DNA of 64,000 nt from Chitinophaga pinensis. GTDB taxonomy: Bacteria > Bacteroidota > Bacteroidia > M30B66. Of the stretch, positions 423 through 64,000 are shown piece by piece. The notes beneath the pieces were generated by a model that worked only from the letters and a program-made list of their open reading frames with translations, was not told the DNA's origin and made no database searches. Both the position numbers and the translations under genes were made by a program. Position 1 is the stretch's first letter. Each line of letters begins with the position of its first letter. The DNA lies in the NCBI GenBank assembly GCA_945883545.1, contig CAMCXT010000010.1, positions 1 through 64,000 on the forward strand. Reading direction: 5' to 3'.

Positions 423-929
423 ATGTTCAGGAGGATCAACTGGCTTTTTTTGTTTGTATTGCTGCTTTTGCAGATGGGCGGATTGTGGACATCATTGAAG
501 ATTCAACAAGGTTTACATCGGTGGGAGATGCTTGAGAGAATAGAATCCGATCCACTTCATTTGGTTACTATTAAAATGTCGGTACAGGAATATGAATCTT
601 GTTTAGTTGAACATGATGAAATACGATGGCATGGAGAAATGTATGACATTAAAGCAGAAACGCTAATTGGTGACACGATCGAATTGATAGCATTTCCAGA
701 TAAGGAAGAGGATCGGATTTTGGATCGACTCACGGTTTTGGAGGATAACCATCCATCGAGAAAAAATGGAGAAACATACCTCTTTGCCTTATCACGAATG
801 CTTTATTTACAGCCCACACTGGATTTTCAAATGTTAATTGTTGATTGCACAGTGAGTTCGGATTTTCAGTATTTACTCAATTGTGCGTCTCCTATTTTAT
901 TCCCCGAAGACTATCCACCTGAGATTTAG
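423..929 (+). CDS. Unknown small membrane-anchored or exported protein
   Basis: I do not recognise a named family. The 168-residue product starts with a basic MFRR and a hydrophobic stretch (about residues 7-24) that could be an uncleaved anchor or a signal peptide without an obvious cleavage site. The rest is soluble and acidic, with the phrase EIRWHGEMYDIKAET in the middle and two Cys in the C-terminal third. Similar small proteins with an E-I/F-x-x-x-G-x-M-Y-D phrase occur in Bacteroidota near TonB receptors and metal genes; this is from memory and only suggestive. It ends 45 bases before the TonB-dependent receptor on the same strand, so the two may be co-transcribed. The ATG at the start is the first in frame. 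Confidence 0.7.
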   Translation: MFRRINWLFLFVLLLLQMGGLWTSLKIQQGLHRWEMLERIESDPLHLVTIKMSVQEYESCLVEHDEIRWHGEMYDIKAETLIGDTIELIAFPDKEEDRILDRLTVLEDNHPSRKNGETYLFALSRMLYLQPTLDFQMLIVDCTVSSDFQYLLNCASPILFPEDYPPEI

Positions 930-974
930 TTGATTTTAAGTTTATCAATTTAAACAACTAATTGTTAAGCAACT

Positions 975-3203
975 ATGATTCAAAGATTTCTTTTTTGTTT
1001 CATGTGTATTGCATTGATTTGGACTAGAGCTTCGGCACAAACTACTCCCCAGCAGAATGCAAAAGATACCCTGAAAACAATCAATCTATTGAAAGTGGTG
1101 GTTTCGGTTAATAAAGATCCGGAAGTACTACGCACTGTAAATCAACAAGTTCAGATATTGAAAACGGAAGATTTGCAGCAATTACAAGCCCAATCAACTG
1201 CCGAAGTTTTGTCGAATATGGGCAATGTGTTTGTGCAGAAAAGTCAAATGGGAGGAGGAAGTCCTATACTCCGAGGTTTCGAGGCTAGTCGTATCTTACT
1301 TGTTGTTGACGGAGTTCGAATGAACAATTTGATCTACCGTTCGGGGCATTTACAAAATGCGATAACGATGGACAATAATTCACTTGAAAGAGTTGAAGTT
1401 TTGTTTGGTCCGAGCTCAACCGTTTATGGAAGTGATGCTTTGGGTGGAGTGGTTCATTTTTTCACCAAGTCGCCCATTTTTGCTGATTCCTTGGGACCGA
1501 AAGTGTTCAAGTCGAACGCATTTGCAAGGTATAGCGGAGTGAATGAAGAGCAGACATATCATGCTGATTTTCATTTAGGAAGCCAGAAATGGGCAAGTTT
1601 TACTTCTATCAACTTTTCGAATTTTGGCGATTTGATGGGTGGTAAAAACCAGAATCCGTTTTATCAAAAAGCCTATGGGGAGAGACCATTATATGTTTCA
1701 AGAATAGATGGAAAAGATTCTTTGGTTAAAAACGACAATCGATTTTTACAAGTTGGAAGTGCCTACACACAGTACGATATTGTTCAGAAAGTGGCCTTTC
1801 GACCAAATAAAAACATGAAACATTTGTTGAATATCCAGTATTCTAATACTAGCGATGTGCCTCGTTATGATCGACTAACAGATCCTAGTAGCAATGGTGG
1901 TTTGCGTTTTGCGGAATGGAATTATGGTCCTCAAGAAAGGCTCATGGCAGCTTATGATTTCGAGAAAAATGGTAATGGATTTTTCCAGTTTCTTCGTGCC
2001 GGAGCAAATTATCAGATGATTGAAGAAAGTAGGATTCAGCGAAATTTCGGCAATCCAATAAGAACTTCACGAATTGAAAATGTGGATGTTATTGGTGCGT
2101 TTTTGAACATGAAGCGAGTAAGCAAGGATCATGTATTACGCGTTGGTCTTGATGCTCAGTATAATATATTAACGTCTACTGCTTCTGTTTTGAATATTGA
2201 AACGAATGAAGAGTCGGCCGCTGATACTCGATATCCGGATGGGAACAATTCAATGTGGAATGTTTCAGCCTACTTGTCGCATACCTGGAAAATGAGTGAA
2301 ATCTTGACTTTGAACGATGGTTTTCGTGTAGGTTATAGTAGTTTGAATTCACAATTCGTGGATACTAGTTTTTTCAAACTCCCCTACTCGACTGTTGAGC
2401 AGAAAAATCCAGTATATTCTGGTAGTTTAGGAATAATCAGTACACCAACGGATGATTTGAAAATTTCATTGATGACATCCACAGGATTTCGTGTTCCGAA
2501 CGTGGATGATTTAAGCAAAGTGTTTGATTCAGCGCCTGGCGATTTGATTGTTCCCAATGCAAATATCCAACCGGAAAAAACAGTGAATTTCGAATTGGGG
2601 ATTACCAAAAGCTTTGGAAAAAAGGCGTATTGGGAGAATGTTGTCTATACTACTACATTCTTCGATGCTATTGTTACAGATGCATTTCAGTTCAATGGAC
2701 AAGATTCTATATTGTATGATGGAGTATTGAGTCGCGTTTTGGCTAACCAGAACAAAGGGGAAGCGCATTTATTTGGTTTTTCATCCAACTATATGGTTCA
2801 AGTTACAGATCATTTAAGTTGGCGTTCGAGTTTGAGTTACACATACGGACGAATTAAAACGGATACGACTGACTATCCCATGGATCATATTCCGCCATTG
2901 ATGGCAAGAACTCAATTGAGCTATAAGATTGGCAGAAGTTCGGCCGATTTCTTTGTGAATTACAATGGTTGGAAGCGCTTGAAGGATTACAACTTAAATG
3001 GCGAAGACAATGAACGTTATGCCATCTCCGAAGGGATGCCGGCTTGGTTTAACTTGAATTTACGTTTCACTTACAAATTGTTCGATGAGTTGGTTTTGCA
3101 GGCTGGTATAGATAATATCTTAGATACTCAATACCGTCATTTTGCTAGTGGAATCAATGCTCCTGGCAGAAATGTATTTGGGGCAATTCGATTGAATTTC
3201 TAA
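975..3203 (+). CDS. TonB-dependent outer membrane receptor (haem/siderophore type)
   Basis: The 742-residue protein has a signal peptide (about residues 1-22, ending ASAQ), a plug domain (about 45-170) and a 22-strand-type barrel ending in aromatic F, as expected for insertion by BAM. The plug carries GGGSPILRGFEASRILLVVD and later LERVEVLFGPSSTVYGSDA, strongly resembling haemin/haemoglobin and ferric-siderophore receptors of the HmuR/PhuR type. A NANIQPEKT segment corresponds to the NPDLKPE barrel motif. There is no carboxypeptidase-like N-terminal extension, unlike the receptor at 12270. It should move a substrate through the outer membrane using TonB-ExbBD, none of which is in the window. 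Substrate is not determinable here. A terminator-like hairpin follows at 3212-3259. Confidence 0.9.
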   Translation: MIQRFLFCFMCIALIWTRASAQTTPQQNAKDTLKTINLLKVVVSVNKDPEVLRTVNQQVQILKTEDLQQLQAQSTAEVLSNMGNVFVQKSQMGGGSPILRGFEASRILLVVDGVRMNNLIYRSGHLQNAITMDNNSLERVEVLFGPSSTVYGSDALGGVVHFFTKSPIFADSLGPKVFKSNAFARYSGVNEEQTYHADFHLGSQKWASFTSINFSNFGDLMGGKNQNPFYQKAYGERPLYVSRIDGKDSLVKNDNRFLQVGSAYTQYDIVQKVAFRPNKNMKHLLNIQYSNTSDVPRYDRLTDPSSNGGLRFAEWNYGPQERLMAAYDFEKNGNGFFQFLRAGANYQMIEESRIQRNFGNPIRTSRIENVDVIGAFLNMKRVSKDHVLRVGLDAQYNILTSTASVLNIETNEESAADTRYPDGNNSMWNVSAYLSHTWKMSEILTLNDGFRVGYSSLNSQFVDTSFFKLPYSTVEQKNPVYSGSLGIISTPTDDLKISLMTSTGFRVPNVDDLSKVFDSAPGDLIVPNANIQPEKTVNFELGITKSFGKKAYWENVVYTTTFFDAIVTDAFQFNGQDSILYDGVLSRVLANQNKGEAHLFGFSSNYMVQVTDHLSWRSSLSYTYGRIKTDTTDYPMDHIPPLMARTQLSYKIGRSSADFFVNYNGWKRLKDYNLNGEDNERYAISEGMPAWFNLNLRFTYKLFDELVLQAGIDNILDTQYRHFASGINAPGRNVFGAIRLNF

Positions 3204-33174: not shown

Positions 33175-33563
33175 GGGGCCGTCATGGTTTTGACAGCGAG
33201 CGCATTGATATGTAAGCATGCCGGGTGTTGCGAGGTTAACCCGAAAATACAATCCGCGAGCCATCAACTGGCGAAAACAACTACGCACTAGCTGCCTAAT
33301 CCTAGAAGGGTTACGCCGCTTACCGGAATGGTAAGCACTAGTTGTCTATCGGGGAAGTTTTCTCAAGTCGTTCCCGACAAGGCATCGTAAAGTTTGAGAT
33401 AGATAGTTCAGGGTCCTGATGAATTATCGAAAACTATCGGGACTAAGAAGAGGGCTGGTTTGTTCCGTTCCTTCCCCCTTCCGACAATTGATTCGGAAAT
33501 AAGCATGTAGAAAGCCTATGAATTCCTTGTTTGGACGCGGGTTCGACTCCCGCCGGCTCCACA
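33175..33563 (+). ncRNA. ssrA: Transfer-messenger RNA (tmRNA)
   Basis: It rescues stalled ribosomes and tags the unfinished protein. The 5' end GGGGCCG pairs with CGGCTCC at the 3' end (one G-U pair), forming the acceptor stem, with GGTTCGACTCCC as the T-arm. The tag frame runs 33270-33299 from the GGC resume codon: GENNYALAA and TAA. This tag is typical of Bacteroidota. The CCA end is not fully encoded (the sequence reads ACA), so it must be added. The alternation of paired arms between tag and T-arm agrees with pseudoknots, which I did not fold exactly. A hairpin follows at 33579-33615. Confidence 0.95.
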
Positions 33564-33578
33564 ATTAATTCAAGTTCC

Positions 33579-62706: not shown

Positions 62707-62762
62707 AAAGAATTCGACACTAAGTTTCAGTTATGCAGCTTGGGTCGAATTCTTTATTTTTG
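62707..62762 (+). terminator. Terminator hairpin whose T run is part of the ttcA promoter
   Basis: AAAGAATTCGAC and GTCGAATTCTTT form a perfect 12 bp stem around a 25-base loop, followed by ATTTTTG. The last T of the stem, the A and the T run also spell TATTTTTG (62755-62762), the -7 box of ttcA. One stretch thus serves the end of one gene and the start of the next. Confidence 0.7.
62755..62762 (+). promoter_or_regulatory. ttcA -7 box
   Basis: TATTTTTG is a perfect match to TAnnTTTG, ending 5 bases before the GTG at 62767; the predicted leader is about 1 base. Confidence 0.55.
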
Positions 62763-62766
62763 CCCC

Positions 62767-63564
62767 GTGGAAACTACGCGCACATTCACCCATGAACAGA
62801 TCACCAAAAGGCTAAGGAAGTCGTATTGGGATGCCCAAGAGAAATTCCAATTGGTAGAGCCAGGCGATAAGATTATGGTGTGCCTATCGGGAGGAAAAGA
62901 CAGCTATACCATGCTCGATCTATTGCTGCACCAGCAAGTGGTGATGGGCAATGCGTTTGAAATATTGGCAGTAAACCTCGACCAGAAACAACCCGATTTT
63001 CCGGAACATATTCTACCTGAATACCTCACAAAATTGAACGTTCCTTTTAGAATATTGGAGCGTGATACGTATTCGGTGGTGACTGAAAAAACGCCCGCAG
63101 GAAAAACCATGTGCAGCTTATGTTCTCGTTTGCGACGTGGAATTTTATATGATGCAGCCGAAGAAATGGGCTGTAATAAAATCGCGCTTGGGCATCATCG
63201 TGAAGATACCTTAGAAACGTTTTTCTTGAATTTGTTTTTTGCAGGAAAACTTGAGGCTATGCCTGCGAAGTTTAGAACCGATGATGGTCGTCATGTTGTG
63301 ATTAGGCCAATGATCTTTTGCAAGGAAGATGAGATTGCCCAATATGCGGTGGAGCGCCAATTTCCAATTATACCATGCAATTTGTGTGGATCGCAGGAAA
63401 ATATGCAGCGACAGGTGGTGAAATCGATGATGATTGAATGGGAGAAGAAATACCCGAACCGCAAGGAAATCATGATGACGGCGATGTCGAATATACATGC
63501 CTCTCACCTATTCGATCCGACGATGTTCGACTTCGAAGGATTAGAGGAATTAGTGAAGAAATAA
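62767..63564 (+). CDS. ttcA: tRNA 2-thiocytidine biosynthesis protein TtcA
   Basis: Thiolates C32 of certain tRNAs. The 265-residue PP-loop ATPase shows MVCLSGGKDSYTMLDLL (PP-loop), MCSLCSRLRRGILYDAAEEM (CxxC, iron-sulphur), NKIALGHHREDTLETFFLNL, and a second CNLCGSQ motif with a third Cys. The 4Fe-4S ligand set is thus visible. The GTG at 62767 is chosen because a -7 box directly precedes it and the upstream open frame lies inside the promoter and terminator. Confidence 0.94.
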   Translation: METTRTFTHEQITKRLRKSYWDAQEKFQLVEPGDKIMVCLSGGKDSYTMLDLLLHQQVVMGNAFEILAVNLDQKQPDFPEHILPEYLTKLNVPFRILERDTYSVVTEKTPAGKTMCSLCSRLRRGILYDAAEEMGCNKIALGHHREDTLETFFLNLFFAGKLEAMPAKFRTDDGRHVVIRPMIFCKEDEIAQYAVERQFPIIPCNLCGSQENMQRQVVKSMMIEWEKKYPNRKEIMMTAMSNIHASHLFDPTMFDFEGLEELVKK

Positions 63565-63616
63565 TCACCTGAATCAATTAGGCTTACTGTTTTAGAAAAG
63601 TGCATTGGTTCGTGAT

Positions 63617-63661
63617 CGGGCCAGGGATCGCAGCAAGGCACCGTGTGCCGCGGAGAGCCCG
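63617..63661 (+). ncRNA. Structured GC-rich intergenic element (GGGAT-GCAGC ... GCGGAGAGCCCG type)
   Basis: CGGGC (63617-63621) pairs with GCCCG (63657-63661), and GGCAC (63637-63641) with GTGCC (63645-63649). Between the stems lie GGGATCGCAGCAA and GCGGAGA. I recall the phrase GGGATnGCAGC...GCGGAnAGCCCGG from many Bacteroidota intergenic regions; it may correspond to the published Flavo-1 RNA motif, which would need a covariance search. The AT-poor element stands out in an AT-rich gap between ttcA and dnaE. Confidence 0.55.
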
Positions 63662-63805
63662 GTTTATGGCCTGCCGAAAAATGTTTTTCAGACCTTCTTG
63701 TGGATATGTTTTGTAAAGTCTGAATATCAATAAATTCACAAGTTTTCAGATGCGACATTCACTTCACTGTTGATAATCATTCGGAAAAAAGAGGTGCCCA
63801 TTATC

Positions 63806-63813
63806 GATCTTTG
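63806..63813 (+). promoter_or_regulatory. Possible dnaE -7 box
   Basis: GATCTTTG differs from TAnnTTTG only in the first base and ends 5 bases before the dnaE ATG. Confidence 0.4.
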
Positions 63814-63817
63814 TTGA

Positions 63818-64000
63818 ATGCCTTCTTTCTCTCATCTTCACGTACACACGCAGTTTTCGTTGCTCGACGGCGCTGCAGATATCAGTAAACTTTACAAAAA
63901 AGCCGTTGCAGATGGGATGCCTGCCATGGCGATTACCGATCATGGAAATATGTTCGGCGTTTTTGCTTTTGTGGCAGAGGCTTATAAAAACAAGGGCGAC
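63818..64000 (+). CDS. dnaE: DNA polymerase III subunit alpha, N-terminal part (cut by window edge)
   Basis: The replicative polymerase subunit; only 61 residues are visible. They begin MPSFSHLHVHTQFSLLDGAA and continue with MAITDHGNMFGVFAFVAEAY, the start of the N-terminal PHP domain with HLHVHT and TDHGN ligand motifs. The rest lies outside the window. The promoter is apparently at the ATG. Confidence 0.93.
   Translation, partial: MPSFSHLHVHTQFSLLDGAADISKLYKKAVADGMPAMAITDHGNMFGVFAFVAEAYKNKGD

What the first reader, a model, noticed from the sequence alone, without database searches (positions are those of the whole stretch)
63617..63661. Structured GC-rich element upstream of dnaE
Two stems with a conserved-looking GGGATCGCAGC and GCGGAGAGCCCG around them form a compact structure in an AT-rich gap. 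The phrase recurs in Bacteroidota intergenic regions to my memory and may belong to a described but functionally unexplained RNA motif. It lies about 160 bases before dnaE and 50 after ttcA; the orientation supports a transcript of the ttcA strand.
Basis: partly seen in the sequence, partly recalled or inferred. Interest (0 to 1): 0.5.

Follow-up and report, generated by a model that had tools for sequence, protein, structure and literature searches.

The report
Repeated folded DNA element after ttcA
The short GC-rich stretch between two genes is one copy of a small folded repeat scattered through many Bacteroidota genomes, a shorter cousin of the unexplained Flavo-1 motif that looks more like a DNA element than a regulatory RNA.

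Summary
Window 63618-63671 (+) is one copy of a dispersed, conserved hairpin element. This sequence alone does not show it: no Rfam hit, ordinary folding energy. A covariance model from 10 copies in four same-genus genomes (own included) matches in 37 of 198 genomes of the class, 10 times in the own genome. All 12 pairs hold in those 10 copies, 6 with two-sided changes. The core is an A-TY-GNA / GRA-RA-G internal loop between GC stems under a short cap hairpin. Rfam Flavo-1 carries the same loop twice in mirror image, so this is a single-module relative that the Flavo-1 model misses.

Copies face neighbouring genes either way, rarely use G-U pairs (2 of 678; tRNA control 25 of 297), and reach the conserved fold more often with DNA than RNA parameters (102 against 27 of 172). 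At eight loci aligned on both sides the core is 93% identical, flanks 60-62%. I favour a REP-like DNA hairpin with an unknown binding protein over a cis-acting RNA. A link to Y1/RAYT transposases was tested and not supported for this element.

The parts
63618..63671 (+). whole element in this copy (single-module, Flavo-1-like extragenic hairpin)
   Evidence: R1 match 63618-63662, 72.5 bits, E 2.9e-15, the only one in the window at E<=1 with filters off (this copy is one of the 10 the model was built from); 3' closing arm to 63671 from the DNA fold; 12 of 12 pairs conserved in 10 copies
63619..63623 (+). outer stem P1, 5' arm (GGCCA)
   Evidence: family-wide, the reverse complement of the 5-nt outer arm is found within 95 nt downstream in 71 of 110 copies, shuffled mean 13.5, maximum 29
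63667..63671 (+). outer stem P1, 3' arm (TGGCC)
63624..63626 (+). inner stem, 5' arm (GGG; pairs 63658-63660)
   Evidence: two of its three pairs change on both sides in other copies
63627..63632 (+). internal loop, 5' side (ATCGCA: A, TY pairs, GNA)
   Evidence: A10, T11, G13, A15 invariant in 10 copies; Y12-R38 covaries C-G/T-A
63633..63634 (+). GC step, 5' arm (pairs 63650-63651)
63637..63649 (+). cap hairpin GGCAC-CGT-GTGCC
   Evidence: arms GGCAC/GTGCC, GGTAC/GTACC, GCTGC/GCAGC, GCTAC/GTAGC, GTTAC/GTAAC in different copies; cells of this helix paired: 50 of 50, 99.5%; one mismatch in 113 cores
63650..63651 (+). GC step, 3' arm
63652..63657 (+). internal loop, 3' side (GGAGAG: GRA, RA pairs, G)
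   Evidence: G35, A37, A39, G40 invariant in 10 copies
63658..63660 (+). inner stem, 3' arm (CCC)
62740..63564 (+). ttcA, upstream neighbour
   Evidence: NCBIfam NF007972, 416 bits, cut-off 272
63818..64000 (+). dnaE start, downstream neighbour (runs off the window)
   Evidence: PHP domain; extension in L372 scores 449 bits to TIGR00594

Best explanation
It is one copy of an interspersed extragenic hairpin element of Bacteroidota, the single-module branch of a superfamily whose double-module branch Rfam calls Flavo-1. Shown by comparison: the fold (outer stem; a 6x6 internal loop with two paired steps; a GC step; a variable but nearly always complementary cap hairpin), its presence in several to many copies per genome, and the conservation of the core in place. 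Inferred: the loop is A.G, T-A, Y-R and a G.A / N.R / A.G zipper (recalled structural knowledge); the working form is a DNA hairpin on one strand, extruded or formed while the DNA is single-stranded, and bound there by a protein common in Bacteroidota. The element spreads like a REP sequence or miniature mobile element acted on in trans, and some copies are kept because they serve the cell, for example as protein-binding sites of the chromosome. Which protein binds and what the bound hairpin does are not shown. I give about 0.9 that it is a single-module Flavo-1 relative and about 0.55 that it acts as DNA rather than RNA.
For: Fold: 10 copies, 120 of 120 cells paired, 6 of 12 pairs with two-sided changes, and RNAalifold finds the same fold unaided. 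In 95 matches (80 distinct rows), 99.7% of 949 cells are paired, with 135 two-sided against 25.9 shuffled (that alignment is fitted to the model). Acts as DNA: no orientation rule toward genes; G-U 2 of 678 in the six pairs left open by the search pattern (one of them limited to Y-R) and 9 of 949 in the model-found set, against 25 of 297 in 14 tRNAs of the fetched DNA; the conserved fold is the MFE (>=11 of 12 pairs) in 102 of 172 cores with DNA parameters and 27 with RNA; on the other strand 25 (DNA) and 41 (RNA). In the window copy the DNA MFE is the conserved fold and the RNA MFE is not. Conserved in place: at 8 same-genus loci whose flanks align on both sides, core 389/418, upstream 290/480, downstream 296/480 identical (summed); at 11 loci with 45-nt cores, of 132 pairs 5 changed on both sides, 2 on one side, 0 broke (without L033/L035). 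Literature passages: in F. psychrophilum, Flavo-1 hits lie indistinctly sense or antisense of transcripts and many lie outside them (PMC9723704).
Against: No binding protein or mobilising enzyme was found. G.A pairs and a strand-specific loop are also typical RNA features. The DNA/RNA comparison is only suggestive: the median gap between conserved fold and MFE is no smaller with DNA parameters (1.70 against 1.40 kcal/mol), and with RNA parameters the other strand reaches the fold more often (41) than this one (27). Orientation was judged with home-made gene calls. In G003/G004, 9 of 16 copies are closer to a paralogue than to their orthologue, so part of the conservation there may be concerted evolution rather than selection on each copy (in G000/G002 it is 0 of 6). 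At the window's own locus the downstream flank is also well kept (49/60) and only the upstream side is not (30/60, core 40/45). This copy faces the same way as both neighbours and follows ttcA in two genera, which a 3' UTR role would also explain.
Confidence: 0.55

Rival explanations
1. It is an RNA element: a protein-binding or processing motif working in transcripts (Flavo-1 is filed by Rfam as an sRNA gene). Here it would sit in the ttcA-dnaE transcript.
For: Compensatory changes; purine-rich loop conserved on one strand; same strand as ttcA and dnaE here, and after ttcA in G000, G002 and G007, with a different gene downstream in G007.
Against: Copies face genes either way; few G-U pairs; RNA MFE seldom the conserved fold, 27 of 172; upstream flanks not conserved, so no shared promoter seen; F. 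psychrophilum transcript data show no sense rule for Flavo-1 (passages).
Confidence: 0.25
2. It is the REP sequence of a Y1 (RAYT/TnpA-REP or IS200-like) transposase and is mobilised by it.
For: Intergenic, multi-copy, imperfect hairpin; PMC6006769 says subclass 2.6 genes of Bacteroidetes are flanked by atypical structures with copies elsewhere (passages); Flavo-1, the double-module kin, lies 75-370 nt from the Y1 ORF in 5 of 55 Y1 loci scanned (two genes were scanned twice), about 1 expected for the 44 loci with a known density, rough Poisson P 0.003.
Against: The single-module element is near none of 69 and 20 loci fetched for Y1 genes (best 16.3 and 15.1 bits). G003, G004, G017, G023, G094 and G159 have R1 matches but no PF01797 match (estimated completeness 86-100%). 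The G110 RAYT in L386 is flanked by its own array of GTAG palindromes of another sequence, with Flavo-1 outside it. No GT[AG]G foot.
Confidence: 0.1
3. A selfish miniature element with no role for the cell; conservation is recent spread plus concerted evolution.
For: Nearly identical copies in G098; 9 of 16 G003/G004 copies closer to a paralogue than to the orthologue; copies in phage DNA.
Against: In G000/G002, the window's lineage, 0 of 6 copies are closer to a paralogue, and at its 6 shared loci the core is 303/328 identical against 212/360 upstream and 233/360 downstream (summed).
Confidence: 0.2
4. Signal recognition particle RNA or a degenerate copy of it (the letters CAGG..GCAGCAAGG resemble its tip).
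For: Resemblance by eye only.
Against: The genome has an ordinary SRP RNA elsewhere (G000:C4:65372-65470, 56.4 bits); no RF00169 match at E<=10 here.
Confidence: 0.01

Closest known systems
Flavo-1 RNA motif (Rfam RF01705; Weinberg et al. 2010, PMC2864571, passages with the Table 1 row seen)
   Same: Same internal-loop module (GAYYGNAGC / GCGGARAGC), similar outer ends (TAGCCCC...GGGAA..GCTCCTA in Flavobacterium copies...CGCCCAAA in this clade), Bacteroidota, intergenic, unknown function; 10 of 10 genomes chosen from those with the single-module element have Flavo-1 matches at E<=0.001, 8 over the cut-off.
   Different: One module instead of two mirror-image ones; the second is replaced by a short GCTAC-CGT-GTAGC-type cap. 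The Rfam model does not find it. A closing stem and, in many copies, a second variable hairpin are not paired in the Rfam model (structure line).
REP sequences and their RAYT (TnpA-REP) transposases
   Same: Intergenic, multi-copy, imperfect hairpins, either orientation.
   Different: No GT[AG]G foot, no linkage of this element to the Y1 loci scanned, 1-23 R1 matches per genome that has any, conserved purine internal loop.
IS200/IS605-end hairpins and MITE-like elements (recalled)
   Same: Small hairpin units with a sharp right boundary, AT-rich surroundings.
   Different: Not tested for other transposases: neighbour genes were not annotated systematically, and no empty site or target duplication was examined.

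Membership tests
Flavo-1 (RF01705) | reaches Rfam gathering score of 42 bits | tested here: not met
   no RF01705 match at E<=10 in 63500-63860; own genome has 5 sub-threshold Flavo-1 sites elsewhere, best 38.9 bits
Flavo-1 (RF01705) | internal loop GAYYGNAGC / GCGGARAGC with U-A and Y-R pairs | tested here: met
   same positions paired in the Rfam structure line and in A3
Flavo-1 (RF01705) | two such loops in mirror image, long central hairpin | tested here: not met
   one loop only, cap hairpin of 5 pairs
Flavo-1 (RF01705) | expressed as an RNA | not testable with these tools
REP / RAYT system | flanks a RAYT gene of the genome | tested here: not met
   no R1 match at E<=0.01 in 69 + 20 fetched Y1 loci (flanks up to 2 kb, shorter at contig ends)
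REP / RAYT system | GT[AG]G foot at the hairpin base | tested here: not met
   no shared GT[AG]G at the foot of the copies listed (by eye); subclass 2.6 is said to lack it too
REP / RAYT system | dispersed intergenic hairpin in many copies | tested here: met
   10 matches in own genome, 23 in G004; 1 of 95 and 3 of 117 inside called genes
Bacterial small SRP RNA (RF00169) | covariance-model match | tested here: not met
Intrinsic terminator | GC stem followed by a T run | tested here: not met
   0 found in 63400-63900; many copies are followed by CCCAAA

The most novel reading that the evidence does not exclude
Flavo-1 and this single-module branch are not RNAs at all but one superfamily of strand-specific single-stranded-DNA hairpins, recognised through a G.A-zipper loop by a still unknown Bacteroidota protein. 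They spread in trans, and in some lineages are rewritten in concert at fixed loci (three G003/G004 loci show the same two-sided G-C/A-T difference).
Probability: 0.3. Interest if true: 0.7.

Novelty: new variant of a known kind. Interest (0 to 1): 0.5.

Why it matters
Flavo-1 is listed in a review's section on the most abundant bacterial small RNAs (PMC9029176, passages) yet has no function. The single-module branch is compact (45-nt core, the same length in most copies found) and turns the open question into simple tests: is it RNA or DNA, and which protein binds the loop? If it is DNA, an Rfam family and the genome annotations built on it are misfiled.

Tried and rejected
SRP RNA: rejected. 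Intrinsic terminator: none. Y1/RAYT cognate repeat: pursued longest; Flavo-1 does lie near 5 of 55 Y1 loci, more than chance would give, but the G110 RAYT has its own GTAG palindromes and the single-module element is close to none of the loci scanned. The 5-versus-1 figure counts 5 hits from all 55 loci against an expectation for 44 of them (two genes appear twice), and rests on densities I copied by hand, so it is rough. attC-like site: considered from recalled consensus, does not seem to fit, not tested by tool. Larger mobile unit ending in the element: paralogous copies in G003 share 400-600 nt upstream and stop about 56-67 nt after the core start. Elsewhere the shared left part is short or absent, so I treat the upstream part as lineage-specific composite repeats. 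L150/L176 (98.9% alike upstream) looked like a transposon but is a syntenic gene region. Replication-strand bias, by oriented GC skew of 101 loci: none seen. Plasmids: no match to one 45-nt copy at E<=1e-3. Papers: searches for sequence strings, Flavo-1, RF01705, RAYT/REP and Flavobacterium repeats showed no description of the single-module element in what I saw: listings of those searches, and passages of six papers (PMC2864571, PMC9723704, PMC9029176, PMC6006769, PMC3733652, PMC12306157).

Rows dropped. Two of the 12 first copies (L039, L040, an orthologous pair with a different 3' part) were left out of the 10-row alignment and model. Gene calls are from a simple codon-usage script; 14 of 95 and 24 of 117 copies lacked a neighbour on one side and were dropped (4 viral copies of 121 were set aside). 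The two sets overlap (both hold G003, G004, G045 and G098 copies), and orthologous copies were not collapsed. From then on, L130 (a duplicate of L207) and two weak matches (L171:1834, L186:996) were dropped. One search compared 15 loci: core 688/733, upstream 518/900, downstream 554/900. On re-checking the flanks, L033/L035 is not a clean orthologue pair and I removed it (14 loci: 645/688, 484/840, 509/840), and only 8 of the rest align at length on both sides; those 8 give the figures used above. L150/L176 is among the 8 although its upstream flank is 98% identical. Some downstream stretches are coding. Searches are quoted without L033/L035.

Full report
What was checked. The stretch at 63617-63661 lies between ttcA (ends 63564) and dnaE (starts 63818), both on the + strand and both confirmed by profile. 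On its own it gives little sign of being special: the only Rfam match in the window at gathering score is tmRNA at 33175-33564, there is no Flavo-1 match even at E<=10, folding energies of the gap equal shuffles (the bare 55 nt reach z -1.86 as DNA), and the phrase is no more frequent in the window than chance.

Copies. blastn with the gap finds one more copy in the own genome and several in three same-genus genomes. Of 12 such copies, 10 align without gaps over 45 nt and were used; L039/L040 differ in the 3' part and were left out. The structure I wrote by hand and the one RNAalifold computes are identical. All 120 pair cells form standard pairs, 20 cells differ on both sides from the commonest pair and none on one side only. 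The model built from them (R1) finds the window copy as the only one in 64 kb, 10 matches in the own genome, and matches in 37 of 198 genomes of the class, with 23 in G004, 21 in G098 and 20 in G110. That search used strict filters and listed only part of the matches. Of the 80 titles shown, 79 name Bacteroidota or taxa within it and one a Nitrotoga MAG, probably a misbinned contig. Four viral contigs carry it; in two (L343, L344) the neighbours are clear phage genes.

Anatomy. From the 95 matches and 121 pattern copies: an outer stem that varies in letters but tends to stay paired (71 of 110 copies have the exact reverse complement within 95 nt, 13.5 expected); an inner 3-bp stem; a 6x6 internal loop A-TY-GNA / GRA-RA-G, in which TY/RA pair and covary and the rest are probably sheared G.A pairs around a stacked base (inference from recalled structural knowledge); a GC step; a two-base bulge; a five-pair cap hairpin, loop usually CNT (longer in a few copies); in many copies a second, variable hairpin; and an end such as CCCAAA or, in Flavobacterium, GCTCCTA. 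The Rfam Flavo-1 structure line shows the same loop twice, mirror-imaged, so I take single- and double-module elements as one superfamily. Ten of ten genomes picked from those with the single-module element have Flavo-1 matches.

DNA or RNA. Four results point to DNA. First, orientation to neighbouring genes is free: 27 sense, 18 antisense, 19 convergent, 17 divergent of 81, and 30, 35, 16, 12 of 93 (overlapping set). Since the purine loop exists on one strand only, a cis-acting RNA should show a rule. Second, in 113 distinct cores, the six pairs left open by the search pattern (one limited to Y-R) show 672 Watson-Crick, 2 G-U, 0 A-C and 4 other; the model-found set has 9 G-U in 949; 14 tRNAs from the fetched DNA have 25 G-U in 297 pairs. 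Third, with DNA parameters the conserved fold is the minimum-energy fold in 102 of 172 cores, with RNA parameters in 27; on the other strand 25 and 41. The window copy behaves the same. The median gap between conserved fold and MFE is not smaller with DNA parameters (1.70 against 1.40 kcal/mol), so this third point is only suggestive. Fourth, upstream flanks are not conserved, so no shared promoter is seen. The published F. psychrophilum transcriptome reports no sense rule for Flavo-1 (PMC9723704, passages).

Selection or spread. At 8 loci of same-genus genomes whose flanks align on both sides the core is 389/418 identical, the 60 nt upstream 290/480, a 60-nt stretch downstream 296/480 (summed). 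At 11 loci with 45-nt cores, 5 of 132 pairs changed on both sides, 2 on one side, none broke, and 23 of 231 unpaired positions changed (without L033/L035). In G003/G004, however, 9 of 16 copies are closer to a paralogue than to their orthologue (6 ties), while in G000/G002, the window's own lineage, 0 of 6 are (without L033/L035). So conservation in the own lineage looks like selection on each copy, and in the sister lineage partly like concerted evolution. At the window's own locus the downstream flank is also well kept (49/60), so the contrast with the core (40/45) is with the upstream side (30/60). In G098, 16 fetched copies include many near-identical ones whose likeness ends at the same right boundary.

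History of this locus. Seven of 15 genomes searched (own included) have a ttcA homologue at E<=1e-20. The element follows it directly in G000, G002 and, in another genus with a different downstream gene, G007; no element is found within 1.5 kb of ttcA in G001, G003, G004 or G009. It is thus tied to the ttcA end rather than to dnaE.

Mobiliser. I tested the obvious candidate, Y1 transposases. They are common (43 of 60 relatives; 21 of 27 chosen genomes), but the element is near none of the 69 and 20 Y1 loci scanned, and six genomes with R1 matches have no Y1 match. Flavo-1 is near 5 of 55, about 1 expected for the 44 with known density, rough P 0.003: a result in favour of a link. But in G110, where the gene in L386 is a subclass-2.6-type RAYT (YIHQNP), the gene is flanked by its own GTAG palindromes, and Flavo-1 lies outside them. 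I read this as a shared landing zone rather than a cognate pair.

Verdict. Real, conserved, repeated; a new single-module variant of the Flavo-1 kind; most likely a DNA hairpin element with an unknown protein partner. Steps shown: fold, copies, conservation, free orientation. Steps inferred: DNA as the working form, a binding protein, movement in trans.

Noticed in passing
window 33175-33564 (+): tmRNA gene, 134 bits to RF00023.
   Followed up: no
L386 (G110:C117) 750-1060: Array of GTAG palindromes (GAGCGTAGTTCGGAAACTACGCTC and kin) beside a subclass-2.6-type RAYT gene: apparently that enzyme's own REPs, where PMC6006769 (passages) speaks of atypical structures.
   Followed up: partly
upstream 80 nt of copies in G098 and G004 (e.g. 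L208-L221, L164, L170): Degenerate 7-nt tandem tracts directly before the element: lag-7 match 0.403 in G098 (shuffled maximum 0.315) and 0.323 in G004 (0.291). Upstream of the copies of the other eight groups it stays within shuffles; in G045 it is raised downstream instead (0.373, maximum 0.329).
   Followed up: partly
L155, L156, L157, L159 (G003): Element forms the right end of a 400-600 nt repeat with an AT-rich middle and CCCCGGAGGGG hairpins; no gene recognised.
   Followed up: partly
L033 (G000:C113) 687-2176 (-): The element's last bases plus about 50 nt of the neighbouring gene's end occur twice, on either side of a 394-aa predicted ATPase ORF (703-1887), as if that gene had been added behind the element.
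   Followed up: partly
L101 (G002:C24) 1851-2435: Y1-like ORF that seems to have lost the catalytic tyrosine motif, with a Flavo-1 match 75 nt upstream of its called start.
   Followed up: no
L354 1894-1938: Acido-Lenti-1-like hairpin (33.8 bits, gathering 37) in a Y1 locus; weaker ones in L072, L100, L107.
   Followed up: no
Y1 loci L069-L114: Most Y1 ORFs printed carry the Y...Q..HH motif that PMC6006769 (passages) gives for its subclass 1.2.
   Followed up: no
L343 7543-7575 (-): Element copy between a tail-sheath and a major-head gene of a phage contig.
   Followed up: partly
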